From: Nocardioides phosphati
GTDB taxonomy: Bacteria > Actinomycetota > Actinomycetes > Propionibacteriales > Nocardioidaceae
NCBI RefSeq assembly: GCF_014646375.1
Contig: NZ_BMNI01000003.1
Span: forward strand, 131,668 to 195,667
DNA: 64,000 nucleotides
Direction: 5' to 3'
Position numbers and translations under genes: made by a program. The notes under the pieces are model-generated. The model was not told the origin of the DNA, searched no databases, and worked only from the letters and a program-made list of their open reading frames with translations. Below are positions 1 through 13,719 of this stretch, one piece after another. Every line of letters begins with the position of its first letter. Positions within the stretch are counted from its first letter, which is position 1.

Positions 1-228
1 CAGGGAGACCACCCGCAAGCCTGGCAGCGCACGCAGCACCGCCTCGTCCACGCGGCCGTAGCCGACCAGCAGCGCTACCGCGTCACCCGCCGCGGCGGCG
101 AGCTCCGCGGGGTCGTCCGACCCGGCCTGCACGACCCGGAAGCCGGCGGCCTCGAGTGCCGCGACACCAGCCGCTACGTGGTCGTCGAGTGCGGCGTAGA
201 CCGCGACCGGCGCGTCCGCCACCGTCAC
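1..228 (-). CDS. 2-hydroxyacid dehydrogenase, N-terminal part (runs off the window)
   Basis: Only the first 76 codons lie in the window. A GTG start at 228 overlaps the stop of the upstream phosphatase gene (GTGA), so the two are probably translationally coupled. The readable protein holds a segment like ALLVGYGRVDEAVLRALP followed by GLRVVSL, which is typical of the N-terminal catalytic lobe of D-isomer-specific 2-hydroxyacid dehydrogenases (phosphoglycerate / hydroxypyruvate reductase type). The NAD-binding GxGxxG region would lie outside the window, so the family call rests on the N-terminal pattern alone and the substrate is unknown. It is the last visible gene of a leftward operon led by an amino-acid ABC importer. 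Confidence 0.55.
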   Translation of the reverse strand, partial: MTVADAPVAVYAALDDHVAAGVAALEAAGFRVVQAGSDDPAELAAAAGDAVALLVGYGRVDEAVLRALPGLRVVSL

Positions 229-1070
229 GGCACCTGGTTGAGGGCCGCCTGCAGCATGCGCTCCCGGTACGCCGGGGTGTCAGCCGGCTCGCTCTCGCCG
301 AAGATCGCGCCGACCCAGTGGCCGTCGGTGTTGTTGGGGAAGAGGATGAACCTCCGGCCGAACTCCTCGGCGTCCTCGCCGGCGAGCACCTTCCGCTGCG
401 CCACGGACTTCACGTAGTACGTGCGGCGGAAGTCGTTGAGGTTGTCGCCGAGGTAGGCGATCACCTCGTGGGTCTCCGCGATCGCCTTCTGCGCAGGCTC
501 CTTGTTGGAGGACTCGCGCAGGAAGGTGCAGTGCGCGTCGTCGGCGTACGCGAGGCCGACGTGGGCCAGGTTCCCGACGCCGTACCTCTGGGTGTCCGGG
601 CCCTGGTCGCGCGAGGAGACGTAGAAGACCTCGACGCCCCTGGACTCCGCGTAGCGGGTGAACTCGACCGCGCCGGCGGTCGCGGTCGGGCCGTTCTCGA
701 TGACCCACTTGTCCCAGAGGGCGTCGTCGAAGGCCTGCTTGCCGGCCGCGACCAGCCGCACCCAGTAGGTGTCGGCGGAGAGCACCGTGTCGTCGACGTC
801 GCAGATCACCGCGAGCGGCTTGTCGCCACGCCGGGTCTGGCCGCGACCACGGAGCACGGCGTCGATGCGGTCGCGGGCGATGTTGAAGCCCTGCCGGTAG
901 AGCATGTCGCGCTCGGCAGCGGTCTCACGCCACGCGACGGCCGCGCTGAGGATGTTCTGGATGTCGTCGGCCGGGGCCGCGGCGGCCCGCCCGGCTCCGG
1001 AGAGCAGGAGCGAACCGCCGGCGATGCCGGTCGCGCCGGTCAGGAGTGAACGGCGGGCGAGGTCGGACAT
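225..1070 (-). CDS. Secreted HAD-family acid phosphatase (class III, e(P4)-like), Tat signal
   Basis: Predicted 281 aa. The N-terminus has a twin-arginine signal (ARRSLLTGA, then an alanine/glycine-rich hydrophobic stretch to about residue 33), so export by Tat is likely. HAD motif I is CDVDDTVLSADTYW with the nucleophile and general-acid aspartates, motif II lies around YVSSRDQ, and the late acidic motif is YLGDNLNDF. This arrangement matches the subfamily IIIB phosphatases that include lipoprotein e(P4). It starts 24 bp after the ABC ATPase gene, so it is probably in the same operon and may release an importable nutrient from a phosphate ester outside the cell (inference). A second protein of the same family is encoded at 35754-36557, also downstream of an importer operon. 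Confidence 0.85.
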   Translation of the reverse strand: MSDLARRSLLTGATGIAGGSLLLSGAGRAAAAPADDIQNILSAAVAWRETAAERDMLYRQGFNIARDRIDAVLRGRGQTRRGDKPLAVICDVDDTVLSADTYWVRLVAAGKQAFDDALWDKWVIENGPTATAGAVEFTRYAESRGVEVFYVSSRDQGPDTQRYGVGNLAHVGLAYADDAHCTFLRESSNKEPAQKAIAETHEVIAYLGDNLNDFRRTYYVKSVAQRKVLAGEDAEEFGRRFILFPNNTDGHWVGAIFGESEPADTPAYRERMLQAALNQVP

Positions 1071-1094
1071 GGGGTCCCTTTCGGGGAGCGGGGC

Positions 1095-1859
1095 TCAGAG
1101 CACCTTGGAGAGGAAGGACTTCGTGCGGTCGTGCTGCGGTGCGTCGATGACCTCGGCGGGCGAGCCGGCCTCCACGACCACGCCGCCGTCCATGAAGACG
1201 ACCGTGTCGGCGACCTCGCGGGCGAAGCCGATCTCGTGGGTGACCACGATCATCGTCATGCCCTCCCTGGCCAGGTCCTTCATGACGTCGAGGACCTCGC
1301 CGACCAGCTCGGGGTCGAGCGCGGAGGTGGGCTCGTCGAAGAGCATCAGCTTCGGCTTCATCGCCAGCGCGCGGGCGATCGCGACGCGCTGCTGCTGGCC
1401 ACCCGAGAGCTGGCCGGGGTAGTTGTCCACGCGCTCGGCCAGGCCCACGCGGTCGAGCAGCCTGAGGGCCTGCTCGCGCGCCTCCGCCTTGCCGACACCG
1501 CGGATCTTGACGGGCGCCTGCATGACGTTCTCCAGCGCCGTCAGGTGCGGGAAGAGGTTGAACCGCTGGAAGACCATGCCGATGTCGCGGCGCTGGGCGG
1601 CGATCTCCTTCGGCTTCATCTCGTGCAGCTTGTCGCCCACCTCGCGGTAGCCGATCAGCGCGCCGTCGACCGAGAGCCGGCCGGCGCTGACCTGCTCGAG
1701 GTGGTTGATGCAGCGCAGGAACGTCGACTTGCCGGAGCCCGACGGACCCAGCAGGCAGAAGACCTCGCCGTTCTTCACCTCGAGGTCGATGCCCTTGAGG
1801 ACCTCGACGTGGCCGAAGGACTTGTGGACGTTCTCGGCCTTGACCATGACGGCGCTCAT
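1095..1859 (-). CDS. Polar amino-acid ABC transporter, ATP-binding protein
   Basis: Predicted 254 aa, the usual length for GlnQ/HisP-type ATPases. Walker A is GPSGSGKST at residues 38-46, the signature is [15 protein letters not shown], Walker B is [16 protein letters not shown], and the switch histidine lies in VVTHEIGFA. It powers uptake of an amino acid or a related cation through the permease encoded just upstream, whose stop it overlaps by 4 bp (ATGA). With the substrate-binding lipoprotein gene it forms a complete three-part importer. Sequence alone does not fix the substrate; basic amino acids are plausible because the divergent neighbours resemble arginine catabolism. Confidence 0.93.
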
Positions 1860-2770
1860 GCGACGCCTCCTTGTGCGTTGCGCAGGAAGAAGAGACGGGT
1901 GATGCCGCCCGTGCGGGTGGTGACGGCGTGGCTGCCCTTGGCGTACTTCTTCTCCAGTCGGCTCTGGAGCGTCGAGAGGACCGTGGTCATCACGAGGTAC
2001 CAGAAGCTGGCGACGAGGTACATCTCGAAGAGCGTGAAGTTCTTGCTGCCGAAGTTGTAGGCCTCGGTGAAGAGGTCGGCGGCGCCGATCGCATAGACGA
2101 GCGCGGTGGTCTTCAGCATGGTGACGACCTCGTTGCCGGTCGGCGGCACGATCACGCGCATCGCCTGCGGCAGGACGATCAGCCGCATCGTCTTCGCGCC
2201 GCTGTAGCCCAGCGCGTGCGCCGCCTCGGTCTGGCCCTGGTCGACGGAGAGGATGCCGCCGCGCACGATCTCGGCCATGTACGCCGCCTCGTTGAGCGCG
2301 AGCGCGAGCAGCGCCGCCCCGAACGGGCTGATCACGTGGTTGGTGTCGACGCTGAACGAGCCGACGCCGAGCCGCGGGAAGACGAGGGCGAGGTTGAACC
2401 AGATGACGATCTGGACCAGGACCGGGGTGCCGCGGAAGATCCAGAGGTAGCCGCCGCTGACCGCGCGCAGGACGGGGTTGCCGGAGAGGCGCATGACGGC
2501 CAGCAGGACGCCGCCGATCACGCCGAGGACCATGGAGAGCACGGTCAGGGCCAGGGTGATGCCGATGCCGTGGAAGATCTCGGGGCGGAACATGTAGTCA
2601 CCGACGACGGACCACTGGATGTTGTCGTTGGCGGCCACCGAGTAGAGCAGGCCGCCGGCGAGCAGCAGGACGACCGCGGCCGAGGCCCACTGGCCGTAGT
2701 GGCGGATCGGGACCGCCTTGATCGGCGCGGGTGCTGTCGACGTACGCGCCGCGGGTGTCGTCGTGGCCAT
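1856..2770 (-). CDS. Polar amino-acid ABC transporter, permease
   Basis: Predicted 304 aa from the ATG at 2770, which overlaps the stop of the binding-protein gene. An N-terminal membrane segment ([19 protein letters not shown]) is followed by the HisM/GlnP-type permease domain with about five more segments. The EAA loop is visible as [20 protein letters not shown], where the ATPase docks, and the family pattern [13 protein letters not shown] is present. The reading frame stays open upstream to 3847, but that part is the antisense shadow of the binding-protein gene and should not be read as a fusion. Such permeases act as homodimers or heterodimers; only one is encoded here. Confidence 0.9.
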
Positions 2771-3678
2771 CAGTCGACCGCACCGTTGAGGGCCGGGGCG
2801 TCGACGGCGCCGCCGTCCAGCTCGTACTTCGCGAGGATCTGCTCGTAGGCGCCGCTCTTGATGACCTCGGCGATGGCGGCGCTGAGCACGTCGCGCAGCT
2901 GGCTGTCCTGCTTGTCGAAGACCATGCCGACCGGGGTGGGCAGGAGCGCCTCGGAGTTGGCGATCTCGAACTGGTTGCCGCCGCCGATGTTCTTGACGTT
3001 GTAGGCGCCGACGGCGTCCTGCGTGAACGTCGCGTCGGCGCGGCCGGTCTGGACCTGGAGCAGCGCGTCCTTGTCGGTCGGGAGCGCGGTGACCATGATG
3101 CTCTTGTCGGCGCACTCCTTCGTGTTGAAGCCCTCGAGCATCTTCAGCTGGGTCGAGCCCTTGAGCACCGCGACGGACCGGCCACAGAGGTCGTCGACGC
3201 CGGCGATCTTGTCGGGGTTGCCCTTCTTGACCACGATCGCCTGGCCGGTCATGAAGTAGTCGACGAAGTCGTACTGCTTCTCCCGGGCCTTGGTGTCGGT
3301 GACGGCGGCCTGGACCAGGTCGAAGCGGCCGGAGTCGAGGGCCGGGAGCAGGCCGTCGAACGCCATGTTCGTGTAGACCAGCTTGACGCCGAGCACCTGG
3401 CCGACGGCCGCAGCGAGGTCGGGGTCGAGGCCGACGATCGTCTTGTTGTCGTCGGCGAGCGACTCGAACGGCGGGTACTGCGCCTCGGTGCCGACCTTGA
3501 TCACGCCGGCCTTGCGGATGTCGGCGGGGAGCTTCGCGCTGAGCGCGGCGTCCTTCTTCTGCACCGCGATGGAGCTCTCCGACTTCGGAGCGTCGGTGCC
3601 ACCCCCGCAGGCGGCGACGAGCGAGCAGGTGGCGGCCGCGGCAGCGAGCCAGGCGGCGGGGCGTGCGATCGGGGTCAT
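2770..3678 (-). CDS. Amino-acid ABC transporter substrate-binding lipoprotein
   Basis: Predicted 302 aa, bacterial extracellular solute-binding protein family 3. A lipoprotein signal ends in the lipobox VAAC with the lipidated cysteine at residue 24, followed by a glycine-rich linker. Family hallmarks include VIKVGTEAQYPPFE near the start of the first lobe, GLDPDLAAAVGQVLG, and FDLVQAAVTDTKAREK. It should sit on the outer face of the membrane and deliver ligand to the permease encoded next to it. It is the first gene of the leftward operon; a gaggtga ribosome-binding site precedes the ATG. It shares a 167-bp upstream region with the divergent XRE-cupin regulator gene. Confidence 0.92.
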   Translation of the reverse strand: MTPIARPAAWLAAAAATCSLVAACGGGTDAPKSESSIAVQKKDAALSAKLPADIRKAGVIKVGTEAQYPPFESLADDNKTIVGLDPDLAAAVGQVLGVKLVYTNMAFDGLLPALDSGRFDLVQAAVTDTKAREKQYDFVDYFMTGQAIVVKKGNPDKIAGVDDLCGRSVAVLKGSTQLKMLEGFNTKECADKSIMVTALPTDKDALLQVQTGRADATFTQDAVGAYNVKNIGGGNQFEIANSEALLPTPVGMVFDKQDSQLRDVLSAAIAEVIKSGAYEQILAKYELDGGAVDAPALNGAVD

Positions 3679-3751
3679 GCGGGTTCACCTCGGGGAGTGG
3701 TGTGGTCTGGGTCACCCGAGCATCACCCGTGGTTTCCTTGATGTCAACCCT

Positions 3752-3782
3752 TGTTTCATGACGAGGTGATGGTGTTTCATGA
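3752..3782. promoter_or_regulatory. Pair of TGTTTCATGA direct repeats, candidate XRE-cupin operator
   Basis: The 10-mer TGTTTCATGA occurs at 3752-3761 and again at 3773-3782, exactly 21 bp apart (two helical turns). Each copy contains the self-complementary core TCATGA. The pair lies in the divergent intergenic region between the ABC importer operon and the XRE-cupin regulator gene, where a local regulator would be expected to bind. The repeat is seen directly; its use as an operator is inferred. Confidence 0.5.
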
Positions 3783-3845
3783 GGGAGAGCGACGTGGCCC
3801 CGGTCACGTTCCGCGACCCGCCACACCCACCGAAGGAGCCCAGCC

Positions 3846-4427
3846 ATGACGGCAGCCGCAGCAGGTCAGTCCGACGGCGCACAGCTCGGCCAGCAGCTCA
3901 AGGCCGTGCGCCAGGCCCGCCGGATGACGCTCGCGGAGGTCGCCGAGTCGGCCGGCATCACCAAGGGCTTCCTCTCCAAGATCGAGCGCGACCAGGCGAC
4001 CGCCTCGGTCGCCTCGCTGATGCGGATCTGCGAGACGCTGCAGATCTCCGTGGGCGAGCTCTTCGACGCCCCCGCCGGTGACGTCGTACGACGGGGTGCC
4101 TACCCGGCGATCAACTTCGGCGGCGTCGGGATGAACGAGTTCCTGCTCACCCCGCGCGGCGAGCAGCGCCTGCAGGCGATCCTCAGCGAGATCGAGCCTG
4201 GCGGCGGCAGTGGCGAGGAGCCCTACAGCCTGCCGGCCGACGTCGAGTTCGTCTTCGTGGTCTCCGGGCGCCTCGCGGTGACCCTCGGCGAGACCGAGAC
4301 CGTCCTCGAGCAGGGCGACGCGCTGACCTTCGCCCCCCATGCCCAGCACACCTTCCGCAGCGCCCTCGAGAAGGGCACCACCCAGGTCCTCTGGGTCTTC
4401 TCGCCGGCGCTTCCCTCGCGCGGCTGA
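3846..4427 (+). CDS. XRE-family transcriptional regulator with cupin domain
   Basis: Predicted 193 aa, the usual length for this two-domain family. Residues about 15-70 form the helix-turn-helix ([20 protein letters not shown], then [18 protein letters not shown]). Residues about 105-185 form a C-terminal cupin barrel with the family run [16 protein letters not shown] and [17 protein letters not shown], which normally senses a small ligand. Relatives such as PuuR regulate amine and amino-acid use. AAGGAG precedes the ATG. It is the first gene of a rightward set with the ureohydrolase, amidase and amine oxidase genes, and divergent from the amino-acid importer, so it probably controls both; the ligand is unknown. 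Confidence 0.88.
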
Positions 4428-4452
4428 ACCGCGAACCGAACCGGAGAACCCC

Positions 4453-5454
4453 ATGACCGAGAACGCCACCGCCCCCACCACCCCGGCCGGCGCCCGCGTC
4501 GACGCGCCCGTCAGCACCCCGATCGGGCCCGTCGACTCCTCGAAGACCCCGCGCTTCGCCGGCATCGCGACGTTCGCGCGGCTGCCGCGGCTGGAGGACG
4601 TCGGCCGCGCGGACATCGCGGTCATGGGCGTGCCCTTCGACAGCGGCGTCTCCTACCGCCCGGGTGCCCGCTTCGCGCCGGCCCAGATCCGCGAGGCCAG
4701 CCGGCTGCTGCGGCCCTACCACCCCGGGCTCGACGTCTCGCCGTTCGCCGCGGTGCAGGTGGCCGACGCCGGTGACATCGCGTGCAACCCCTACAACATC
4801 CCCGAGGCGCTCGACGCCGTGCAGGAAGGTGCCTCCACCCTCCTCGACGCCGGCTCGAAGATCGTCACGATCGGTGGCGACCACACGATCGCCCTGCCGC
4901 TGCTGCGCGAGATGAAGCGCCGCCACGGTCCCGTCGCGCTGCTCCACTTCGACGCGCACCTCGACACCTGGGACACCTACTTCGGCGCCGACTACACCCA
5001 CGGCACGCCGTTCCGCCGGGCCTTCGAGGAGGACCTCCTCGACACCGAGGCGCTGGCCCACGCCGGTATCCGCGGCCCGCTCTACTCCAAGGACGACCTC
5101 ACCGACGACGCCCGCATGGGCTTCGGCATCACCACCGCGATGGACGTCATGAACGAGGGCGTCCCCGCCGTCGTCCAGGCCCTGCGCGAGCGCATCGGCG
5201 ACCGCCCCCTCTACATCTCCATCGACATCGACTGCCTCGACCCGGCGCACGCGCCCGGCACCGGCACCCCCGAGGCCGGCGGCATGACCAGCCGCGAGCT
5301 GCTCGGCATCCTCCGCGGACTGGCCGGCACCAACATCGTCGGAGCCGACGTCGTCGAGGTCGCCCCGGCGTACGACCACGCGGACATCACCGCGGTCGCC
5401 GCCTCCCACGTCGCCTACGAGCTCGTCTCGCTGATGGCGCTGCAGGGTCGCTGA
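4453..5454 (+). CDS. Ureohydrolase (agmatinase / guanidinobutyrase type)
   Basis: Predicted 333 aa from the ATG at 4453, which has GGAG upstream; the frame is open earlier, but that part overlaps the regulator gene. The six binuclear manganese ligands are all visible: His144 in GGDHTIALP, Asp167, His169 and Asp171 in [10 protein letters not shown], and Asp258 and Asp260 in [14 protein letters not shown]. The enzyme should hydrolyse a guanidino group to urea plus an amine. Agmatine is the textbook substrate, but the adjoining amidase and flavin oxidase make 4-guanidinobutyrate the better guess, giving GABA and urea. The choice among agmatinase, guanidinobutyrase and guanidinopropionase is not settled by sequence. 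Confidence 0.85.
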
Positions 5455-5458
5455 TCCG

Positions 5459-6262
5459 ATGAAGATCGCCGTGTGGCAGACCGGGTCGGGCGGCCTCGAC
5501 AGGCTGCGGGAGCGCGCCCTCGAGGCGGCAGCCGCCGGGGCGCGGCTGCTGGTCGTTCCCGAGGCCTTCACGAGCGGCTATGCGGTCCCGGGCATCGCCG
5601 AGGCCGCCCAGCCGGTCGACGGCCCCTGGCGCCAGGCGATCGCCGCGATCGCGACCGATGCCGGCCTCGCGATCCTCTACGGCTTCCCCGAGCGCGACGG
5701 AGACCGGGTCCTCAACAGCGCTGCCCTCGTCGACGTGGACGGCTCGGTGCTCGCCCTGCATCGCAAGTGCCATCTCTTCGGCGACCTCGACACCTCGACG
5801 TACGCACCGGGGGAGTCGCTCGCGACGCTCACCGAGCTCGACGGGCTCCGGGTCGGCATCCTGATCTGCTACGACGTCGAGTTCCCCGAGGCGGTGCGCA
5901 CGCTGGCGCTCGCCGGCGCGGACCTCGTCGCCGTGCCCACCGCGCTGATGCGCCCCTATGAGGTCGTCGCGCGCACGCTCGTGCCCGCGCGCGCCTACGA
6001 GAACCAGGTGTACGTCGCGTACGCCAACCGCAGCGGGTCCGAGGGCGACCTCACCTACTGCGGAGAGAGCTGTGTGGTCGGCCCCGACGGTGCCGACCTC
6101 GCCCGTGCAGGCTCCGGTGACGAGCTGTTGCTGGCCGAGATCGATCCGGCCCGGCTCGCGTCCTCGCGCGCCGACAACACCCACCTCGGTGACCGTCGCC
6201 CGGAGCTCTACGCCTCCCTGGTCGACGGCGCCCCTGTCACAGATGAGGAGCACGCCCGATGA
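5459..6262 (+). CDS. Carbon-nitrogen hydrolase (nitrilase-family amidase)
   Basis: Predicted 267 aa. The Glu-Lys-Cys triad is clear: Glu35 in VVPEAFTSGY, Lys103 in HRKCHLFGD, and Cys137 in GILICYDVEFPE. Proteins of this size and pattern usually hydrolyse small amides. It begins 4 bp after the ureohydrolase gene and its stop overlaps the amine oxidase start by 4 bp (ATGA), so the three are almost certainly co-translated. In the arginine monooxygenase pathway an amidase converts 4-guanidinobutyramide to 4-guanidinobutyrate, and in the parallel lysine pathway 5-aminovaleramide to 5-aminovalerate. The first fits this neighbourhood better because of the ureohydrolase. Confidence 0.85.
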   Translation: MKIAVWQTGSGGLDRLRERALEAAAAGARLLVVPEAFTSGYAVPGIAEAAQPVDGPWRQAIAAIATDAGLAILYGFPERDGDRVLNSAALVDVDGSVLALHRKCHLFGDLDTSTYAPGESLATLTELDGLRVGILICYDVEFPEAVRTLALAGADLVAVPTALMRPYEVVARTLVPARAYENQVYVAYANRSGSEGDLTYCGESCVVGPDGADLARAGSGDELLLAEIDPARLASSRADNTHLGDRRPELYASLVDGAPVTDEEHAR

Positions 6263-7956
6263 CCTCGGCCGTCCCCACCAACGCCACCACCGAAGGCGTC
6301 ACCAAGCCGATCACGATGTTCGGCCCCGACTTCCCCTTCGCCTACGACGACTACGTCGCGCACCCGGCCGGCATCGGCTCGATCCCGCAGGGCGCGCACG
6401 GCACCCGCGTCGCGATCGTCGGCGGCGGCCTGTCCGGCATGCTCGCCGCCCGCGAGCTGCTGCGGATGGGCTTCGAGCCCGTCGTCTACGAGGCCGACCG
6501 CATCGGCGGCCGGATGCGCTCGGTCACCTTCGACGACCACCCCGACGCGCAGGGTGTCGTCGCCGAGATGGGCTCGATGCGCTTCCCTCCGTCGTCGACC
6601 ACGCTCTTCCACTACCTCGACGAGATGGGGCTGGCCACCGAGGCGTTCCCCAACCCGCTCTGCGAGGCGACGCCGAGCACCGTGGTCGACCTCAAGGGCG
6701 AGACCCACTACGCCCGGACGCTCGAGGACCTGCCGCCGGTCTACACCGAGGTCGCCGAGGCGTGGAGCCAGACCCTCGAGGAGTACGCCGAGCTCGGGCC
6801 GCTCCAGGACGCCATCCGCGCGCGTGACGCCGCGAAGGTCAAGGAGATCTGGAACGGCCTGGTCGAGCGCTTCGACGACGAGACCTTCTACGGCTTCCTC
6901 GCGCGGAGCAAGGCGTTCCGGAGCTTCCGCCTGCGCGAGATCTTCGGCCAGGTCGGCTTCGGCACCGGCGGCTGGGACACCGACTACCCGAACTCGATCC
7001 TCGAGATCCTCCGCGTCGTCGTGACCGCGGCCGACGACCACCATCGCGGCATCGTCGGTGGCTCGCAGCAGCTGCCGGAGCGGCTCTGGTCGCTCCCCGT
7101 CGACGGCGCGGCGCACTGGCCGGCGGGCACGTCCGTGCAGTCGCTGCACGAGGGCGGCGTTCCGCGGCCCGCGGTGACCGAGATCCGGCGTACCGAGCCC
7201 GACCGGTTCACACTCCACGACGCCGACGGGCGCATCGACACCTTCGACGCGGTCATCTACACCGCGCAGTCGTGGATGCTGCTCAACACGATCCGGGCCG
7301 ACGAGCGGCTGCTGCCGATCGACCACTGGACCGCGATCGAGCGCACGCACTACATGGGCTCGAGCAAGGTCTTCGTCCTCGTCGACCGGCCGTTCTGGAA
7401 GGACATCGACCCGGAGACGGGCCGCGAGGTCATGAGCATGACGCTCACCGACCGGATGAGCCGCGGCACCTACCTGCTCGACCAGGGCGAGGGGAAGCCG
7501 GGCCTGATCTGCCTGAGCTACACGTGGTCCGACGACTCGCTGAAGCTGCTGCCGCTCGACGCGCAGGCGCGCGCCGACATCATGCTCAACTCGCTCGCGC
7601 AGATCTACCCGGGCGTCGACATCCGCTCGCACATCATCGCCACGCCGGTGACGATCTCGTGGGAGCAGGAGAAGGCGTTCATGGGCGCCTTCAAGGCGAA
7701 CCTGCCCGGCCACTACCGCTACCAGGAGCGGCTCTACACGCACTTCATGCAGGACCGGCTCGCGCCGTCGTTCCGCGGCCTCTTCCTCGCCGGCGACGAC
7801 GTGTCGTGGACGGCCGGCTGGGCGGAGGGCGCGGTGACCACGGCGCTCAACGCGGTCTGGGGCGTCATGCACCAGTTCGGTGGTGCGACTGCTCCGGAGA
7901 ACCCGGGCCCGGGCGACGTCTTCGACGCGATCAAGCCGGTGGTCCTGGAGGACTGA
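6259..7956 (+). CDS. Flavin monoamine oxidase / amino-acid 2-monooxygenase-like protein
   Basis: Predicted 565 aa. The FAD-binding Rossmann motif VAIVGGGLSGMLAARELL sits near residues 51-68, after a roughly 50-residue N-terminal arm, and is followed by the acidic ribose-binding residue in VVYEADRIGGRMRS. The C-terminal FAD signature is LFLAGDDVSWTAGWAEGAV. Length, the N-terminal arm and overall layout resemble tryptophan and lysine 2-monooxygenases, which oxidatively decarboxylate an amino acid to an amide. Coupled to an amidase and a ureohydrolase, the likely substrate is arginine (inference). An ordinary L-amino-acid oxidase or amine oxidase remains possible. Confidence 0.8.
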   Translation: MTSAVPTNATTEGVTKPITMFGPDFPFAYDDYVAHPAGIGSIPQGAHGTRVAIVGGGLSGMLAARELLRMGFEPVVYEADRIGGRMRSVTFDDHPDAQGVVAEMGSMRFPPSSTTLFHYLDEMGLATEAFPNPLCEATPSTVVDLKGETHYARTLEDLPPVYTEVAEAWSQTLEEYAELGPLQDAIRARDAAKVKEIWNGLVERFDDETFYGFLARSKAFRSFRLREIFGQVGFGTGGWDTDYPNSILEILRVVVTAADDHHRGIVGGSQQLPERLWSLPVDGAAHWPAGTSVQSLHEGGVPRPAVTEIRRTEPDRFTLHDADGRIDTFDAVIYTAQSWMLLNTIRADERLLPIDHWTAIERTHYMGSSKVFVLVDRPFWKDIDPETGREVMSMTLTDRMSRGTYLLDQGEGKPGLICLSYTWSDDSLKLLPLDAQARADIMLNSLAQIYPGVDIRSHIIATPVTISWEQEKAFMGAFKANLPGHYRYQERLYTHFMQDRLAPSFRGLFLAGDDVSWTAGWAEGAVTTALNAVWGVMHQFGGATAPENPGPGDVFDAIKPVVLED

Positions 7957-7990
7957 GGGCCTGGCCGTGGGGCCGTGGGGGCAGCTGGCG

Positions 7991-8761
7991 TCAGGCGGCG
8001 TGCAGCACGCCGCGTGTACGCCGTGCGGTCTCGCGCGCTGCCCACGGCGCGAGGTCGCGGACCCGGCGGCCGAGCCACGGCGCGACGTCGGCGACCAGGG
8101 TCCGGGCGCGGTCGCGGCGCGTGGCCGGGGCGCTCGTGCAGACCAGGGAGGGAAGCGGGAACCGCAGGCCCTCGGCGTTGAGCAGCGAGCCGACCTTCCA
8201 CGCCAGCACACGGTGGCCGAGCTCGGAGGGGTGCAGGCGGTCGAAAGACCAGAAGACCCGGTCCTGCATCGTCGCGTCGGCGGTCAGGTCGAGCTGCAGC
8301 ACGCCGTACCGCTCGTGGATCTCGGCGTAGATCTGGTTGAGCACGCGGATCCGCGCGCGCATCGGACGGGCGAGGACCTCGGGCAGCCCGAGCACACGGG
8401 TGTGGTCGTGGAACTGCACGGTGATCAGCAGCGTGCCCTGGCGGGCGAGCTCGGACGCGCAGTGCAGGAGGTCCTCGCGGAGGCGGTCCGGGTCCCACGA
8501 GGAGCGCATCGCGTCGTTCAGGCCGACGACGAGCGAGGCCACGTGCGGGCGGTGTGCGAGCGCCTCGGCGAGCTGCTCCCGGCGTACGTCGGCGACGGTC
8601 GCGCCGGGGACGGCGAGCTTGCAGAAGGAGACGTGGTGCTCGCGTCCGATCGCGTCGGCGAGCAGCTGCGCCCATCCGCGCCAGCCGGCCGGTGTCGGGT
8701 CGCCGACGCCGCAGGAGGCCGAGTCGCCGAGGGCGGCGATGCGGACGTAGTCGGCGCTCAC
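7991..8761 (-). CDS. SGNH/GDSL-type hydrolase
   Basis: Predicted 256 aa from a GTG start at 8761. Block I is ALGDSASCGVGD with the nucleophile Ser14, block III is VVGLNDAM with the oxyanion Asn, and block V is RLHPSELGH with the catalytic Asp/His pair region. This is the usual layout of intracellular SGNH esterases found in many actinobacteria. No signal peptide is apparent. It is convergent with the amine oxidase gene (34 bp between stops), and a small unknown gene lies 10 bp upstream in the same direction. The substrate cannot be told from sequence. Confidence 0.85.
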   Translation of the reverse strand: MSADYVRIAALGDSASCGVGDPTPAGWRGWAQLLADAIGREHHVSFCKLAVPGATVADVRREQLAEALAHRPHVASLVVGLNDAMRSSWDPDRLREDLLHCASELARQGTLLITVQFHDHTRVLGLPEVLARPMRARIRVLNQIYAEIHERYGVLQLDLTADATMQDRVFWSFDRLHPSELGHRVLAWKVGSLLNAEGLRFPLPSLVCTSAPATRRDRARTLVADVAPWLGRRVRDLAPWAARETARRTRGVLHAA

Positions 8762-8771
8762 GGTGATCGCC

Positions 8772-8975
8772 TCAGATCGCCGCGAGCAGCTGGTCGGCCT
8801 GGGCGCGGAGCACGTGGGCGGCGCCGCGGTGGCTGATGACGGACAGGGGGGTCGGCTCCCAGTAGGGCGTCGCCGCGTTCTCGTCGCAGGCGAGGGCGTC
8901 CTCGTCGCGCGCCATCTGCAGGAGCAGCGAGCGCAGCCGGGTGGCGGTGCCGGTGTCGATGGTGGTGGTGTTCAT
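8772..8975 (-). CDS. Small protein of unknown function
   Basis: Predicted 67 aa, not recognised. The composition is that of a soluble, mostly helical protein: LRSLLLQMARDEDALACDEN is likely one helix and GAAHVLRAQADQLLAAI another. It contains one cysteine and no transmembrane segment. It lies 10 bp upstream of the SGNH hydrolase gene and is probably co-transcribed with it. Codon use has the strong third-position GC of its neighbours, which supports real coding. Confidence 0.5.
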   Translation of the reverse strand: MNTTTIDTGTATRLRSLLLQMARDEDALACDENAATPYWEPTPLSVISHRGAAHVLRAQADQLLAAI

Positions 8976-9148
8976 GGCTGCGGTGCTTCCTCTCTGGGTC
9001 CTGCTTGCGGGGTGCTTCCAGTCAAGGACGATCCCGCCCCGGGGGCGACGGGAGGACTACGTAGGTCGGTACCTGTTTCGGGGCACCACGTAGTGCGTAG
9101 GGGCGCGCTAGGTTGGCCTCGTTCGGGGACGACGTGCTGGAGGAGCAG

Positions 9149-11458
9149 ATGACCGAGGCTCTCGCCGTGCCTGACCCGGCAGGGCAGCTGCCGGCCGAGG
9201 TGACCTCGTTCGTCGGCAGGCGCTTCGAGCGCAGCACCGTGCGCGAGCTCCTCAGCGAGTACCGCCTGGTCACGCTCACCGGTTTCGGCGGCATCGGCAA
9301 GACCCGTTTGGCGATGCGGATGGCCGCGGAGCTGCGGCGGGTCCATCCCGACGGCGTCTGCTTCGTGCCGCTCGGTGCGCTCGAGGTCGCCGAGGAGGTC
9401 CCCGACCAGGTCGCGGCCTCTCTCGGCCTGACCGGGCGGTCGCCCGCGTCGAGCCCCGCGGCGATCGTCGACTACCTGCGCGAGAGGACGATGCTCCTGG
9501 TCCTCGACAACTGCGAGCACGTCGTCGACGCGGCGGCCGTGCTGGCCGAGACGGTGCTCCGCTCGTGCCCGACGGTCCGGATCCTCGCCACCAGCCGCGA
9601 GCCGCTGCGGGTCGAGGGCGAGGTGGCCCATGCGGTGACGCCGCTGAGCCTCCCGGGTGGCGCAGGCGCCGGCCTGCAGGAGTCCGAGGCGGTCCAGCTC
9701 TTCCTCGACCGCGCCCGGGCGAGTGCCCCTGGTTTCACGTTGAACAACGAGAACCGGGCGGCGGTCGCTGCGATCTGCCGGAAGCTCGAGGGGATCCCCC
9801 TGGCGCTCGAGCTCGCGGCCGCGCGCCTGACCACGCTCTCGGCGTACGAGCTGGAGCAGGGGCTGACCGACCGCTGGGAGCTGCTCAGCCGCGGCCGGCG
9901 TACGGCGCCACACCGGCAGAGCACGATGGCCGCCTGCATCGAGTGGAGCTTCGACCTCTGCACCCCCGCCGAACGCCGGCTGTGGGCGCGAGTGGCCGTC
10001 TTCGTCGACGGGTTCGAGCATGACGCCGTCCGTGTGGTCTGCGCGGCACCGGATGAGGCCGAGCCGCTGCTCGAGACGCTGGCCTCCCTGGTCGACAAGT
10101 CGGTGCTGACCGCCACCCGCGAGGGCGCCACCACCCGCTTCCGGATGCTGCCGCCGCTGCGCCAGCGCGGGCTCGCCGAGCTCGAGCGGATCGGCGAGGC
10201 GACCGCCGTACGCCAGCGGCACCGCGACTTCCACCTCGACCTGGTCGCCCGGGCCCACGCCGCCTGGCTGGGCGCGGACCAGCTCGGCTGGATCGACCGC
10301 GTACGCCGCGAGCTGGGCAACATCACCGAGGCGCTCGAGCAGTGCGTGGCCGATCCCCAGGCGACCGCCGCGGGGCTGCGTGCCTGCGGCCACCTCCTCG
10401 AGTACGTCCACATCCTCGGTCTCTTCCGGCAGGGCCGCCGCTGGGCCGAGCACCTGCTCGCGGTCGCGTCGGACGACGTCGACGCACGGGTGCGCGCGCT
10501 CCGGGCGGCGACCGCCTGGGCGACGATCCAGGGCGACCTCCCCGCGGCGACGGCACTCCTGGCGGAGGCCGAGGAGCTCGCCGGGCCGGGCTACGGGGAG
10601 CTGCAGACGCTCCTCGTGCAGGCCGCCGGTCTCGTCGCGCAGTACGCGGGCCAGCTCGAGGAGTCCGAGCGCCTGCTGGTCGAGGCCGACCGTCGCTTCA
10701 CCCGGACCGGCGAGCTGGCCGAGGCCGCGCACTGCCGGATGCTGCTGGTCATCACGGCGGTGCTGCGCGACCAGCCCGACCGGGCGCTGGAGTTCCACCG
10801 CTCGTGCCTCGCCCTCACCGAGCCCGTCGGCGAGGGCTGGGTGCGCTCCTGGTCGCTCTGGGCCGCGGGCATCGCCGAGTGGATGCGCGGCGACACCGCC
10901 GCCGGCCAGCGGATGCTCGCGCAGTGCCTGCGGCTCGAGCGCGCGATGGCGGAGCGCATCGGCATCGGGTCGGTGATGGAGGCGATGGCCTGGACGCTCG
11001 CCCACGGTGACCCGGAGCGCGCGGTCGTCCTCATGGGCGCCACGCAGAACGAGTGGGAGCGGGTCGGTGCGGCGATCGACGCGCTGCCCGGCTTCGCCGT
11101 ACGGCACCGTGAGGCGGAGGCGACCGCACGGGCGCAGCTCGGCGACGTGCGGTACGACGAGGCGCACGCGCGCGGACGGGCCCTCGACCAGGCGGCGGCG
11201 ATCGCGCTCTGCCTGGGGGAGCGGGCCGCGCCGCCCGTCGCGGCCGTGCCGAAGCCGGTGCTGACCCGCCGCGAGCGGCAGATCGCCGAGCTGATCCACC
11301 AGGGCCTGACCAACCGCGAGATCGCGGACGCCCTCGTCATCTCGACCCGCACCGCCGAGGGCCACGTCGAGCACATCCTCACCAAGCTGGGCTTCACCAG
11401 TCGCACGCAGGTCGCGGCGTGGGTGGCCGAGCAGCACCTCGCAGAAGGACGGTCCTGA
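9149..11458 (+). CDS. Large NTPase-TPR regulator with C-terminal LuxR DNA-binding domain
   Basis: Predicted 769 aa from the ATG at 9149, chosen because GGAGGAG lies just upstream; a TTG at 9113 is the alternative. Residues about 20-300 form a STAND-type NTPase module with Walker A GFGGIGKT (45-52) and Walker B LLVLDNCEHV. The middle is a helical region resembling tetratricopeptide repeats. The last about 65 residues form a LuxR-type helix-turn-helix (LTRRERQIAELIHQGLTNRE, then IADALVISTRTAEGHV). Such proteins are large ATP-dependent transcription activators in actinobacteria. The targets are unknown; the ProC-like gene begins one base after its stop, so the two are linked in expression. Confidence 0.85.
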   Translation: MTEALAVPDPAGQLPAEVTSFVGRRFERSTVRELLSEYRLVTLTGFGGIGKTRLAMRMAAELRRVHPDGVCFVPLGALEVAEEVPDQVAASLGLTGRSPASSPAAIVDYLRERTMLLVLDNCEHVVDAAAVLAETVLRSCPTVRILATSREPLRVEGEVAHAVTPLSLPGGAGAGLQESEAVQLFLDRARASAPGFTLNNENRAAVAAICRKLEGIPLALELAAARLTTLSAYELEQGLTDRWELLSRGRRTAPHRQSTMAACIEWSFDLCTPAERRLWARVAVFVDGFEHDAVRVVCAAPDEAEPLLETLASLVDKSVLTATREGATTRFRMLPPLRQRGLAELERIGEATAVRQRHRDFHLDLVARAHAAWLGADQLGWIDRVRRELGNITEALEQCVADPQATAAGLRACGHLLEYVHILGLFRQGRRWAEHLLAVASDDVDARVRALRAATAWATIQGDLPAATALLAEAEELAGPGYGELQTLLVQAAGLVAQYAGQLEESERLLVEADRRFTRTGELAEAAHCRMLLVITAVLRDQPDRALEFHRSCLALTEPVGEGWVRSWSLWAAGIAEWMRGDTAAGQRMLAQCLRLERAMAERIGIGSVMEAMAWTLAHGDPERAVVLMGATQNEWERVGAAIDALPGFAVRHREAEATARAQLGDVRYDEAHARGRALDQAAAIALCLGERAAPPVAAVPKPVLTRRERQIAELIHQGLTNREIADALVISTRTAEGHVEHILTKLGFTSRTQVAAWVAEQHLAEGRS

Positions 11459-11459
11459 C

Positions 11460-12278
11460 ATGGGTCTCGACGGACTGCGGCTCGGGTTCATCGGCACCGG
11501 GGCGATCACGGCCGCGATGGTGCGGGGCCTGCTCCGCTCGGACCTGCGCGTCGGTGCGCTGCTGCTGTCGCCGCGCAACGCCACGATCGCTGCTGAGCTC
11601 GCCACGCTCGACGACCGTGTGCGGGTCTGCGCCAGCAACCAGGAGGTGCTCGACGGCGCCGACGTCATCTGCGTCGCGGTCGTCCAGCAGATCGTGCGCG
11701 AGGTGGTGGGCGCGCTGGAGTTCGCGCCGCGGCACCACGTCATCACGTTCGTGCCCGGCACGCCGCTCGGCGTACTCGCGGAGCTGACCGGGCCCGCCGG
11801 CAGCCTCGCGCGCGCCGTACCCCTGCCTGCGGTGGAGTTCGGCGAGGGCGTGACGGTGGTGCACCCGGGCGACGCGCTGACGACGCGAGTCTTCGACGCG
11901 CTGGGTGGCGCCGTGGCCGTCGACGACGAGGCGCACTTCGAGCCGCTCTTCGCCGCGACGGCGACGATGGCGAGCTTCTACGCCGTGCAGGACGCCGTGA
12001 CCTCGTGGCTCGGCGAGCAGGGAGTGCCGGCGGGCGCGGCACGTCACTTCGTCGGGGGCTACTACGCGAGCCTCGCCTCGGAGGTCGAGCGGAGCCCCCG
12101 CGCGCTCCAGGAGCTCATCGCCGGCATGACCCCCGAGGGCCTCAACGAGCAGGTGCACGCCGAGCTCTCCGCTGCGGGCGCCTACGACCACTACGGACCG
12201 GCCCTCGACCGCGTCCTCGCGCGGCTGCGGGCGACCGGCGCGGACGACGCCGACGCCGTGGTTGACTCGCGCTCGTGA
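11460..12278 (+). CDS. Pyrroline-5-carboxylate reductase family (ProC-like) protein
   Basis: Predicted 272 aa, close to the normal ProC length. It has an N-terminal NAD(P)-binding pattern LGFIGTGAITAAMVRGLL, a mid-domain VVQQIVREVVGALEF, and a C-terminal helical dimerisation region with FVGGYYASLASEVER. The bacterial ProC signature near the C-terminus is not well matched, so this may be a divergent imino-acid or ketimine reductase rather than the proline-biosynthesis enzyme. It follows the LuxR-type regulator by one base and overlaps the TRIC-family gene by 4 bp. Confidence 0.7.
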   Translation: MGLDGLRLGFIGTGAITAAMVRGLLRSDLRVGALLLSPRNATIAAELATLDDRVRVCASNQEVLDGADVICVAVVQQIVREVVGALEFAPRHHVITFVPGTPLGVLAELTGPAGSLARAVPLPAVEFGEGVTVVHPGDALTTRVFDALGGAVAVDDEAHFEPLFAATATMASFYAVQDAVTSWLGEQGVPAGAARHFVGGYYASLASEVERSPRALQELIAGMTPEGLNEQVHAELSAAGAYDHYGPALDRVLARLRATGADDADAVVDSRS

Positions 12279-12898
12279 TGATGGCCCTCGACCTGCTCGC
12301 GATCTTCGTCTTCGGCGTGGCGGGCGGGCTGACCGCGGTCCGCATGGGCATGGACATCGTCGGCGTCGCGGTGCTCGGCACGGTCTCCGGCATCGGCGGC
12401 GGGATGATGCGCGACGTGCTCATCGGTGCGCTGCCGTCGCCGTTGCTCTCCGACTGGCGCTATCTCTGCGCGCCGCTGGTGGGCGGGCTGCTGACCTTCT
12501 GGTTCCACCCCGCGATCGGCCGCCTGGAGCGGGCGATCAACATCGTCGACGCCTTCGGGCTGGGCCTCTTCACCGTCGCCGGTGCCGTGAAGGCGACCGA
12601 GCACGGGCTCGGTCCGGTGCCCGCCACGATGCTCGGCGTGATGACGGGCGTCGGTGGTGGCGTGCTGCGTGACGTCCTGACCCGGCAGGTGCCGGAGCTG
12701 CTCCGCGCCGGCACGCAGCTCTACGCGACGACCGCCCTCGCCGGCGCCGCGCTCACGGTCGCCGTCATGCGGCTGGAGGCTCCGACGGTCGCGGTCGTGC
12801 TGACCGGCGTCACCGTCACCACCGGGTTCCGCCTCCTCACGATCTGGCGCGGCTGGACCGCCCCCAGTCCCGTCCTGGTCTCGCCCCGCCCCGAGTAA
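12275..12898 (+). CDS. TRIC-family (UPF0126) cation channel-like membrane protein
   Basis: Predicted 207 aa, about seven hydrophobic segments. It shows the internal duplication of this family, with two matching halves: GVAVLGTVSGIGGGMMRDVL early on and TMLGVMTGVGGGVLRDVL in the second half, each with the GGGxxRD signature. Bacterial relatives are trimeric monovalent cation channels in the inner membrane; the physiological role is uncertain. The start overlaps the ProC-like gene, and the gene ends in a 47-bp convergent gap to the MOSC gene. Confidence 0.85.
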   Translation: MMMALDLLAIFVFGVAGGLTAVRMGMDIVGVAVLGTVSGIGGGMMRDVLIGALPSPLLSDWRYLCAPLVGGLLTFWFHPAIGRLERAINIVDAFGLGLFTVAGAVKATEHGLGPVPATMLGVMTGVGGGVLRDVLTRQVPELLRAGTQLYATTALAGAALTVAVMRLEAPTVAVVLTGVTVTTGFRLLTIWRGWTAPSPVLVSPRPE

Positions 12899-12905
12899 CA
12901 CGCCC

Positions 12906-12938
12906 CGAAGCGGCACATCTGGAGTGCCGAGGCGGCAC
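12906..12938 (+). repeat. 33-bp intergenic repeat, copy 1
   Basis: This unit matches the reverse complement of 13744-13776 at 28 of 33 positions. Each unit contains two copies of a GAGGCGGCAC-like word about 21 bp apart. The two units lie in opposite orientation on either side of the MOSC gene. I see no transposase or target duplication. Confidence 0.6.
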
Positions 12939-12945
12939 GTCCGGG

Positions 12946-13719
12946 TCAGGAGCCGAGCGTCAGCACGTCGTCGACGGAGATCGTCCCGGCCTCGACGACG
13001 TCGGCGTAGACCCCGAACGCCGGGCCCGGCCCGAGCACCGTCTCCTGCCGGCCGCGGTAGCCGATGATCTGCCGCAGCGTCTGCAGGTCGACCGCGCCGG
13101 AGTCGGGGTTGCGGGTCGTCGCGGCGCAGCGCTTGACCAGCCCGCCCCCTCGCAGGACGGCGCTGCCCATCGCGATCTCCCGGTCCTGCCAGGTGTCCTC
13201 CTCGTGCGGCTCGCCGCCCGCGAACTCGACCAGCATCCGGAACCGCCGGGCATCGACCGCCTCCAGTCCGGCCCGCCGCGCCAGCTCGGCGACGGACGCC
13301 GAGCCGACCAGCGTCGCAGGGCACACGTCGTACGCCGGGGCGTGGGCGCGCAGGAGCCGCACCGGTTTGCCGAGGACGGTGGAGAAGAGGTCGTCCCAGT
13401 CGTGGCCCACGTGGGAGGCCCGGCCGGTGCGGAGGCCGTGGAGGTCGATGTCGACCGGGGCGCCGTCCTCGACCTCACCGCTCAGCAGCACCTCGCCCGA
13501 CCGGCTGACGGAGAGGCGGCGCTGCGCTGCGTCGTACGCCGCGCGGAGGGGGAGGAGGGCCTGGTGGTGCGTGCAGCTCTGCAGCGTGCCGGCCGCGTCG
13601 ACGAGGAGGAACTGCCGGTCGCCCGGCACGCCGCGCGGCGTGATCTCGATCGACGTGGGGTGGTGGAGCTGCAGGCCCTTGACCGGGGTGATCGAGAGGC
13701 GCGTGACGCGGTAGGGCAC
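12946..13719 (-). CDS. MOSC-domain protein (N-terminal beta-barrel plus MOSC)
   Basis: Predicted 257 aa. The N-terminus has the MOSC beta-barrel pattern (ITPVKGLQLHHPTSIEITPR followed by GVPGDRQFLLVD). The C-terminal MOSC region carries GGGLVKRCAATTRNPDSG, where the cysteine is the residue expected to contact the molybdenum cofactor sulphur in this family. Relatives include YcbX and mARC-type reductases, which reduce N-hydroxylated compounds. No fused ferredoxin is present, so an external electron donor would be needed. It lies alone between convergent and divergent neighbours and is bracketed by two inverted 33-bp repeats. Confidence 0.82.
   Translation of the reverse strand: MPYRVTRLSITPVKGLQLHHPTSIEITPRGVPGDRQFLLVDAAGTLQSCTHHQALLPLRAAYDAAQRRLSVSRSGEVLLSGEVEDGAPVDIDLHGLRTGRASHVGHDWDDLFSTVLGKPVRLLRAHAPAYDVCPATLVGSASVAELARRAGLEAVDARRFRMLVEFAGGEPHEEDTWQDREIAMGSAVLRGGGLVKRCAATTRNPDSGAVDLQTLRQIIGYRGRQETVLGPGPAFGVYADVVEAGTISVDDVLTLGS

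What the first reader, a model, noticed from the sequence alone, without database searches (positions are those of the whole stretch)
3846..7956. Likely arginine 2-monooxygenase pathway in a XRE-cupin controlled operon
A flavin oxidase of tryptophan/lysine 2-monooxygenase type, a nitrilase-type amidase and a ureohydrolase with all six metal ligands are tightly coupled. In series they would convert arginine to guanidinobutyramide, guanidinobutyrate, then GABA and urea, avoiding the common arginase or deiminase routes. A divergent amino-acid importer would bring in the substrate. The individual families are known; this assignment as a set is inferred.
Basis: partly seen in the sequence, partly recalled or inferred. 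Interest (0 to 1): 0.6.

Follow-up and report, generated by a model that had tools for sequence, protein, structure and literature searches.

The report
Arginine-to-GABA operon via arginine 2-monooxygenase
A soil-type actinobacterium carries a compact gene set that most likely imports arginine and breaks it down by an old, little-sequenced oxygen-dependent route to the common metabolite GABA plus urea; the chemistry is known, while the complete operon and its likely DNA control site help to find the route in other genomes.

Summary
Window 3846-7956 holds four tightly packed genes: XRE-cupin regulator, ureohydrolase with all six metal ligands, nitrilase-type amidase and flavin amine oxidase. 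A divergent amino-acid ABC importer lies at 1095-3678. The flavoenzyme is 56% identical to the solved AIU 813 L-amino acid oxidase/monooxygenase, which itself makes 4-guanidinobutanamide from arginine, and keeps its side-chain-binding Asp. In 80 named actinobacterial loci the amidase is adjacent in 75 and the ureohydrolase near in 52. A lysine-type sister operon (L060) has a transaminase and an aldehyde dehydrogenase instead of the ureohydrolase. The genome has one ureohydrolase, no arginine deiminase or predicted arginine decarboxylase, a urease, and a gabT cluster about 14 kb away. I found a 16-bp candidate operator (TGTCAACNCNNGTTTC, window 3742-3757): 41 of its 51 exact matches in 2.45 Mb lie upstream of the regulator gene, the other 10 before the amidase, permease or flavoenzyme gene. 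The chemistry is classical (Streptomyces griseus; azalomycin starter unit), so this is a new member of a known kind. Weakest point: ureohydrolase residues do not decide between 4-guanidinobutyrate and other guanidino acids.

The parts
1095..1859 (-). ABC importer ATPase, polar/basic amino-acid (GlnQ/EhuA/HisP-like) family
   Evidence: Pfam ABC_tran; best NCBIfam GlnQ 342 bits, below its cut-off 379
1856..2770 (-). ABC importer permease, amino-acid type
   Evidence: BPD_transp_1; TIGR01726 HEQRo_perm_3TM 74.5 bits over cut-off 42.2; start ATG read from the translation
2770..3678 (-). Solute-binding protein, family 3 (lipoprotein-like start, by eye), probably for arginine / basic amino acids
   Evidence: SBP_bac_3; nearest solved sequence AncQR; TIGR01096 Lys/Arg/Orn SBP 119 bits, below cut-off 256
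3742..3757 (+). Candidate operator TGTCAACCCTTGTTTC in the divergent promoter region
   Evidence: Only exact match of TGTCAACNCNNGTTTC in the 3.54-Mb genome; 41 of 52 regulator upstream regions hold it; the other 10 of 51 matches lie before amidase, permease or flavoenzyme genes
3752..3761 (+). First copy of direct repeat TGTTTCATGA (overlaps the candidate operator)
   Evidence: 2 matches in 64 kb with 1 mismatch allowed, both exact; 0.39 expected, 5 of 100 shuffles had 2 or more
3773..3782 (+). Second copy of TGTTTCATGA, 21 bp downstream; its core TTTCATGA is in only 4 of 52 regulator upstream regions
3846..4427 (+). XRE-type HTH + cupin regulator (PuuR-like architecture), likely local sensor-regulator
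   Evidence: HTH_3, Cupin_2; next to the ureohydrolase in 44 of 80 named loci
4453..5454 (+). Ureohydrolase, proposed 4-guanidinobutyrase
   Evidence: Best solved sequence P. aeruginosa guanidinobutyrase 3nio; six metal ligands and guanidino-acid-hydrolase-like loop length
5459..6262 (+). Nitrilase-superfamily amidase, proposed 4-guanidinobutyramide hydrolase; E35-K103-C137 (triad recalled, positions counted by hand)
   Evidence: CN_hydrolase; nearest solved amidases 5jqn/3hkx; adjacent to the flavoenzyme in 75 of 80 named loci
6259..7956 (+). Flavin amine oxidase, proposed L-arginine 2-monooxygenase (decarboxylating)
   Evidence: 56% identity over 547 residues to AIU 813 L-AAO/MOG 3we0; D238, R102, Y416, W235, W418, F473, W516 kept

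Best explanation
The locus is a catabolic operon for L-arginine by the oxygenase route. The ABC importer brings in arginine. The FAD enzyme oxidises it with O2 and decarboxylates it to 4-guanidinobutyramide, probably leaking some 2-oxo-acid and H2O2. The nitrilase-type amidase yields 4-guanidinobutyrate and ammonia. The metal-dependent ureohydrolase yields GABA and urea. GABA then goes to succinate through the separate gabT-gdh-SSADH cluster, and urea to urease. The XRE-cupin protein binds a TGTCAACNCNNGTTTC site between importer and operon and probably controls both when an arginine-derived ligand binds its cupin. Shown here: gene content, order, family, conserved residues, comparative linkage, conservation of the site, presence or absence in the genome of the other routes searched. 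Inferred: every enzymatic step, the imported substrate, that the regulator binds the site, its ligand and the sign of regulation.
For: Flavoenzyme 56% identical to AIU 813, whose wild type makes 4-guanidinobutanamide from L-Arg with kcat 1.6 per s against 0.41 per s for oxidation (PMC5832979 passages). Ureohydrolase nearest in the PDB to guanidinobutyrase and grouped with the three guanidino-acid hydrolases apart from the two agmatinases, support 0.997. Linkage. Presence correlation. L060, whose flavoenzyme carries the AIU 813 residues C254/Q258/A515, sits with amidase, GABA-type transaminase and ALDH and a related importer, and its genome G444 has no hit to this ureohydrolase at E 1e-60. L058: a related flavoenzyme with ureohydrolase and PKS, as expected of amino-marginolactone clusters (PMC4737276 passages). 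AruI-like ThDP enzyme beside the ureohydrolase in some relatives. Own genome: one ureohydrolase, no arcA, no OKR decarboxylase, no speA over cut-off, urease, gabT over cut-off with GDH and SSADH-like ALDH. Candidate operator.
Against: No biochemistry. AIU 813 itself has higher kcat/Km for Orn and Lys than for Arg, so homology alone does not name arginine. The flavoenzyme differs at C254 (Ala), Q258 (His) and A515 (Gly); C254 controls the oxidase/monooxygenase ratio in AIU 813, so the ratio here is unknown. The ureohydrolase has Tyr176 where GbuA has Met161 (as in GpuA) and Trp at the E. coli agmatinase Tyr155 position where GbuA, GpuA and PAH have Asn; it is 41.7-43.2% identical to all five references, so identity does not choose; it passes two NCBIfam agmatinase cut-offs. 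The ureohydrolase is also found without the flavoenzyme (65 of 329 genomes). The amidase is missing beside the flavoenzyme in 5 of 80 named loci, of which L093, L100 and L107 have regulator, ureohydrolase and flavoenzyme without it. In Streptomyces-type loci the ureohydrolase is not adjacent. Five of 65 flavoenzyme-positive genomes lack it.
Confidence: 0.84

Rival explanations
1. A lysine (or ornithine) 2-monooxygenase operon of DavBA type; the ureohydrolase is an unrelated passenger, for example an agmatinase.
For: Closest solved flavoenzyme prefers Orn and Lys. Alphaproteobacterial relatives H2 and H3 have an amidase and no ureohydrolase within 8 kb. NCBIfam names the ureohydrolase agmatinase.
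Against: The ureohydrolase accompanies the flavoenzyme in 52 of 80 named loci and 60 of 65 genomes. The lysine-like clade (AIU 813, L060, L176, L177; support 1.0) carries different residues, and L060 has a transaminase and ALDH instead. No predicted agmatine source in the genome. GbuA, GpuA and PAH segments also pass the TIGR01230 agmatinase cut-off.
Confidence: 0.07
2. The flavoenzyme is chiefly an L-arginine oxidase; 2-ketoarginine plus H2O2 gives 4-guanidinobutyrate non-enzymatically, the amidase serving only a minor amide flux.
For: AIU 813 has both activities and C254 sets the ratio; here it is Ala. AruI-like genes lie in the operon of L065, L090 and L110. L093, L100 and L107 lack the amidase nearby. 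H2O2 decarboxylates 2-ketoarginine (PMC2242806 passages).
Against: The amidase is the most constant neighbour (75 of 80), which makes sense with an amide product. Own genome: only a 29% match to the AruI-like protein.
Confidence: 0.05
3. The substrate is another guanidino amino acid, such as homoarginine or canavanine.
For: The Asp238-type pocket accepts several basic side chains; ureohydrolase chain-length preference is not fixed by residues.
Against: Arginine is the abundant candidate (general knowledge); a GABA catabolic cluster lies about 14 kb away and gabT scores over cut-off; the arginine monooxygenase of azalomycin biosynthesis acts on arginine (PMC5082578 passages), though its sequence was not compared.
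Confidence: 0.04

Closest known systems
Arginine 2-monooxygenase pathway of Streptomyces griseus (van Thoai; EC 1.13.12.1, 3.5.1.4, 3.5.3.7 recalled)
   Same: Proposed chemistry is the same; PMC2242806 (passages) credits S. griseus with the first description of a route from arginine to 4-aminobutyrate, calling it the oxidase/dehydrogenase pathway
   Different: Here all three enzyme genes, a regulator and an importer lie together; in the Streptomyces loci read here the ureohydrolase is not near the flavoenzyme
Arginine monooxygenase and 4-guanidinobutyramide hydrolase of azalomycin / marginolactone starter-unit supply
   Same: First two steps, as described in PMC5082578 passages; DstH amidinohydrolase parallels the ureohydrolase (PMC4737276 passages)
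   Different: There 4-guanidinobutyrate is activated to CoA for a PKS; here it is probably degraded. The reference protein sequence was not in hand, so no direct alignment to it was made
L-AAO/MOG of Pseudomonas sp. AIU 813 and lysine DavBA pathway
   Same: 56% identity, same substrate-binding Asp; amidase partner of the same family in the lysine-like operon L060
   Different: Residues C254/Q258/A515 are A/H/G here; the lysine-like operon has transaminase and ALDH instead of a ureohydrolase (L060)
Guanidinobutyrase GbuA of Pseudomonas aeruginosa (3nio)
   Same: Best PDB match, same loop-B length, shared R-P-Y segment
   Different: 41.7% identity only; Tyr for Met161, Trp for Asn in loop A; in P. 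aeruginosa part of the transaminase/ketoarginine route (recalled)

Membership tests
Arginine 2-monooxygenase pathway (catabolic) | Tryptophan/lysine 2-monooxygenase-type flavoenzyme encoded | tested here: met
Arginine 2-monooxygenase pathway (catabolic) | Amidase of the C-N hydrolase family and ureohydrolase encoded with it | tested here: met
Arginine 2-monooxygenase pathway (catabolic) | GABA transaminase and SSADH in the genome | tested here: met
   TIGR00700 635.5 bits over cut-off 506.65; SSADH-like ALDH 548 bits, below the TIGR01780 cut-off 646
Arginine 2-monooxygenase pathway (catabolic) | Measured conversion of arginine to 4-guanidinobutyramide, 4-guanidinobutyrate and GABA | not testable with these tools
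   needs bench work
AIU 813-type L-amino acid oxidase/monooxygenase | Asp238, Arg102, Tyr416, aromatic cage Phe473/Trp516, Trp235, Trp418 | tested here: met
   residue roles from PMC5832979 passages
AIU 813-type L-amino acid oxidase/monooxygenase | Cys254 that balances oxidase and monooxygenase activity; Gln258; Ala515 | tested here: not met
   Ala, His, Gly; this ten-residue pattern in 124 of 135 aligned rows, some genes present twice
4-Guanidinobutyrase | Ureohydrolase metal ligands H, D-x-H-x-D, D-x-D | tested here: met
4-Guanidinobutyrase | Long loop B as in GbuA/GpuA/PAH, 8 residues longer than in the two agmatinases compared | tested here: met
4-Guanidinobutyrase | Met161 (GbuA) at the substrate loop | tested here: not met
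   Tyr176 here, Tyr in 61 of 61 relatives; role of Met161 recalled from Lee et al. 2011, not read
4-Guanidinobutyrase | Preference for 4-guanidinobutyrate over other guanidino acids | not testable with these tools
   needs assay
Agmatinase | Passes TIGR01230 / NF002564 cut-offs | tested here: met
   244.9 vs 174.3 and 315.4 vs 302; TIGR01230 is also passed by the GbuA, GpuA and PAH segments, NF002564 by none of the three
Agmatinase | Trp68 (E. coli) that holds the amino group of agmatine; short loop B | tested here: not met
   Gap at the aligned column in the window and 61 of 61 relatives, but also in the Burkholderia agmatinase 4dz4; loop B long; role from PMC8125230 passages
Lysine DavBATD pathway | Transaminase and glutarate-semialdehyde-type ALDH adjacent | tested here: not met
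   Not in the window operon; present in L060

The most novel reading that the evidence does not exclude
The operon belongs to one XRE-cupin arginine-oxygenase regulon, spread over several actinobacterial genera and marked by the TGTCAACNCNNGTTTC site, in which the flavoenzyme is by design two-way: its amide product goes through the nitrilase, and in some members its 2-ketoarginine leak goes through an AruI-like ThDP decarboxylase encoded between ureohydrolase and amidase (L065, L090, L110; near the locus in L059 and, beside a second ureohydrolase, in L068), both converging on the ureohydrolase. Lysine-specific versions arise by exchanging the ureohydrolase for a transaminase/ALDH pair together with the C/Q/A residues.
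Probability: 0.27. Interest if true: 0.55.

Novelty: new member of a known kind. Interest (0 to 1): 0.38.

Why it matters
An annotated example names these proteins NAD(P)/FAD-dependent oxidoreductase, agmatinase (speB) and carbon-nitrogen hydrolase family protein (H1). A coherent assignment would put a sequence handle on the oxygenase route of arginine breakdown in Rhodococcus, Nocardioides, Geodermatophilus and Tsukamurella, help to correct agmatinase labels, and give a compact test system: one regulator, one short site, and a lysine/arginine enzyme pair for studying specificity. The chemistry itself is not new.

Tried and rejected
Rejected: TTTCATGA as the general operator; it is in only 4 of 52 regulator upstream regions. 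I then found TGTCAACNCNNGTTTC by eye in the same upstream regions, which makes the 41 of 52 count post hoc. The more independent parts are the other 10 matches, the single exact hit in the own genome and the controls (reversed pattern 0 in 2.45 Mb; 200 permuted patterns mean 0.01). With 2 mismatches allowed the own-genome hits are near the reversed control, so I claim no wider regulon.

Rejected: choosing the ureohydrolase substrate by overall identity (41.7-43.2% to all five references) or by the NCBIfam agmatinase label. Promoter/terminator scan of 3600-8100 and Rfam on 1-9000 found nothing. ThDP enzyme as a confirmed AruI: three examples score 338-357 bits on NF005712, below its cut-off of 500, and higher on a hypothetical-protein model, 345-400 bits, so only 'AruI-like'. 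Literature: 10 searches; judging by titles, abstract starts and the passages read, none listed a paper on this operon, but the library lacks most subscription journals. No structure prediction was run: at 56% identity to a solved enzyme it would not settle specificity.

Presence statistics ignore the tree apart from the genus-level count. On rechecking L068 has its ThDP gene beside a second ureohydrolase about 6 kb beyond the flavoenzyme, not in the operon; I lowered the novel-case odds from 0.30 to 0.27 for that.


Full report
What is there. The four genes of the finding are at the stated places and are packed like an operon, with gaps of 25 and 4 nt and a 4-nt overlap. Each family is clear in Pfam. 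A complete amino-acid ABC importer diverges from them. The window lies in a 3.54-Mb genome, 99% complete.

The flavoenzyme. The best solved relative is the AIU 813 L-amino acid oxidase/monooxygenase (724 bits), 56% identical over 547 residues; tryptophan 2-monooxygenase is second (214 bits). From the AIU 813 ligand structures (PMC5832979, abstract and passages read) Asp238 holds the positive side-chain end, and the wild type turns L-Arg mainly into the amide (kcat 1.6 versus 0.41 per s), although its kcat/Km is higher for Orn and Lys. Asp238, Arg102, Tyr416, Trp235, Trp418, Phe473 and Trp516 are all kept here. Cys254, Gln258 and Ala515 are Ala, His and Gly. This ten-residue pattern is in 124 of 135 aligned rows (with some genes present twice). 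The C/Q/A pattern is shared only by AIU 813 and L060 among those rows, and L/Q/A by two alphaproteobacterial plasmid genes; these four form one clade with support 1.0.

A natural contrast. L060, from an unnamed actinobacterium, has the C/Q/A flavoenzyme followed by the amidase, a class-III aminotransferase that passes the GABA transaminase cut-off and an aldehyde dehydrogenase, and a divergent importer related to that of the window (ATPase 68%, permease 48%, SBP 38%). That is the gene content expected for lysine to 5-aminovaleramide, 5-aminovalerate and glutarate (pathway recalled). Its genome, G444, is one of five flavoenzyme-positive genomes of 65 without this ureohydrolase. So the third step seems to be exchanged according to whether the side chain ends in an amine or a guanidine. 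It is a single example, but my strongest argument for a guanidino substrate.

The ureohydrolase. All six metal ligands are invariant. P. aeruginosa guanidinobutyrase gives the best PDB score, 275 bits, ahead of guanidinopropionase (259), proclavaminate amidinohydrolase (256) and agmatinases (229, 202). It shares with the first three a loop B that is 8 residues longer than in the two agmatinases, and it lacks the Trp68 that holds agmatine in E. coli agmatinase (PMC8125230 passages); the Burkholderia agmatinase lacks it too at that column. In a tree with five references the actinobacterial ureohydrolases group with GbuA, GpuA and PAH apart from both agmatinases (support 0.997), beside rather than within the trio, which has support 0.865. 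Against this, it has Tyr at the GbuA Met161 position and Trp where the three acid hydrolases have Asn. The agmatinase label is weak evidence: GbuA, GpuA and PAH pass TIGR01230 as well, though not NF002564, which this protein passes, and human 'agmatinase' has been shown to hydrolyse guanidino acids and not agmatine (PMC9772407 abstract and passages). So a guanidino acid is likely, and 4-guanidinobutyrate is chosen by pathway context.

Comparative linkage. In the 80 named loci kept (best of 405), the amidase lies within 1.5 kb of the flavoenzyme in 75, the ureohydrolase within 4.5 kb in 52, the XRE-cupin gene within 5 kb in 45, and an APC-type amino-acid permease within 4.5 kb in 43. In the 16 unnamed 20-kb-class stretches with the flavoenzyme (L045-L060) the amidase is adjacent in 12 and the ureohydrolase near in 3. 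L093, L100 and L107 have regulator, ureohydrolase and flavoenzyme but no amidase hit nearby. Of the 28 named loci without a near ureohydrolase 24 are Streptomyces or Amycolatopsis; in the class survey all 38 flavoenzyme-positive genomes of genus g30, which groups with named Streptomyces, still carry the ureohydrolase elsewhere. Of 14 stretches taken around ureohydrolases away from the flavoenzyme, 5 (L182, L183, L185, L188, L193) have an AruI-like ThDP enzyme next to it and 9 have no such hit. The same type of enzyme lies between ureohydrolase and amidase in L065, L090 and L110 (3 of 80), after the ureohydrolase in L059, and beside a second ureohydrolase in L068. L058 pairs a second, 61% identical flavoenzyme with a ureohydrolase and a polyketide synthase, which fits the published amino-marginolactone clusters found with an arginine oxidase gene as probe (PMC4737276 passages).

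Genome context. One ureohydrolase only, so no separate arginase; no arginine deiminase; no OKR-type decarboxylase; the one speA-model match is 58 bits, far below its cut-off of 624, so agmatine has no obvious source. I did not search for the succinyltransferase route. Urease alpha is present. A gabT gene over cut-off, a glutamate dehydrogenase, an SSADH-like dehydrogenase and a PucR-type regulator lie together about 14 kb upstream of the ureohydrolase. Thus both products have an outlet.

Control site. Upstream regions of the regulator gene share TGTCAACNCNNGTTTC: 41 of 52, the window's included. In 2.45 Mb (117 loci and the window, with some overlap between loci) there are 51 exact matches; the reversed pattern has none, and 200 permuted patterns average 0.01. 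The 10 matches not at the regulator lie 137-149 bp before the amidase (5), directly before the permease reading frame (4) or, in L047, 72 bp before the flavoenzyme gene, whose ureohydrolase lies 9 kb away. In the window's genome the only exact match is at 3742-3757. TGT triplets recur at 3742, 3752 and 3773, one and two helical turns apart. This fits a regulator acting at the divergent promoter; whether it represses or activates is open. The motif was found by eye in these data, and close relatives are counted separately.

Comparison with the known. The route is classical: PMC2242806 (passages) credits S. griseus with arginine to 4-aminobutyrate, and PMC5082578 (abstract and passages) names arginine monooxygenase and 4-guanidinobutyramide hydrolase. 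What may be new is the complete catabolic operon with importer, regulator and candidate operator, and the exchange of the last step between arginine and lysine types. Ten searches of the open-access library listed no paper that I recognised as describing such an operon, which is weak evidence because most subscription journals are missing. I file it as a new member of a known kind.

Distribution. Of 58 near genomes searched, 3 have the flavoenzyme at E 1e-80 or better, the own genome included; in the class, 65 of 394. The patchy presence suggests gain by transfer or frequent loss (inference).

Noticed in passing
L060 (unnamed actinobacterium), 5637-13293: Apparent lysine DavB-DavA-DavT-DavD type operon with a related divergent ABC importer; flavoenzyme has the AIU 813 residues C254/Q258/A515.
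   Followed up: partly
L065 7579-9219, L110 7513-9141, L182 10830-12518: AruI-like ThDP enzyme beside the ureohydrolase, below the cut-off of the 5-guanidino-2-oxopentanoate decarboxylase model; substrate unknown.
   Followed up: partly
L058 3054-19999: Second flavoenzyme copy in a Streptomyces-type genome close to a ureohydrolase, a LuxR-type regulator and a polyketide synthase: possible amino-marginolactone cluster.
   Followed up: partly
own genome C3:118119-123919 (L044 6119-11919): gabT, glutamate dehydrogenase and SSADH-like gene with a divergent PucR-type regulator, outside the window.
   Followed up: partly
L062, L063: Distant flavoenzyme paralogues with Phe instead of Asp238 and Cys instead of Phe473, perhaps for a hydrophobic amino acid.
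   Followed up: no
L093, L100, L107: Regulator, ureohydrolase and flavoenzyme together without an amidase hit nearby; the amidase may be elsewhere or dispensable.
   Followed up: no
window 225-1070 -: HAD class IIIB acid phosphatase / e(P4)-like protein directly downstream of the importer ATPase; no evident link.
   Followed up: no
window 9113-11458 +: Large regulator-like protein with an apparent ATP-binding N-terminal part and a LuxR-like C-terminus (by eye); not examined.
   Followed up: no
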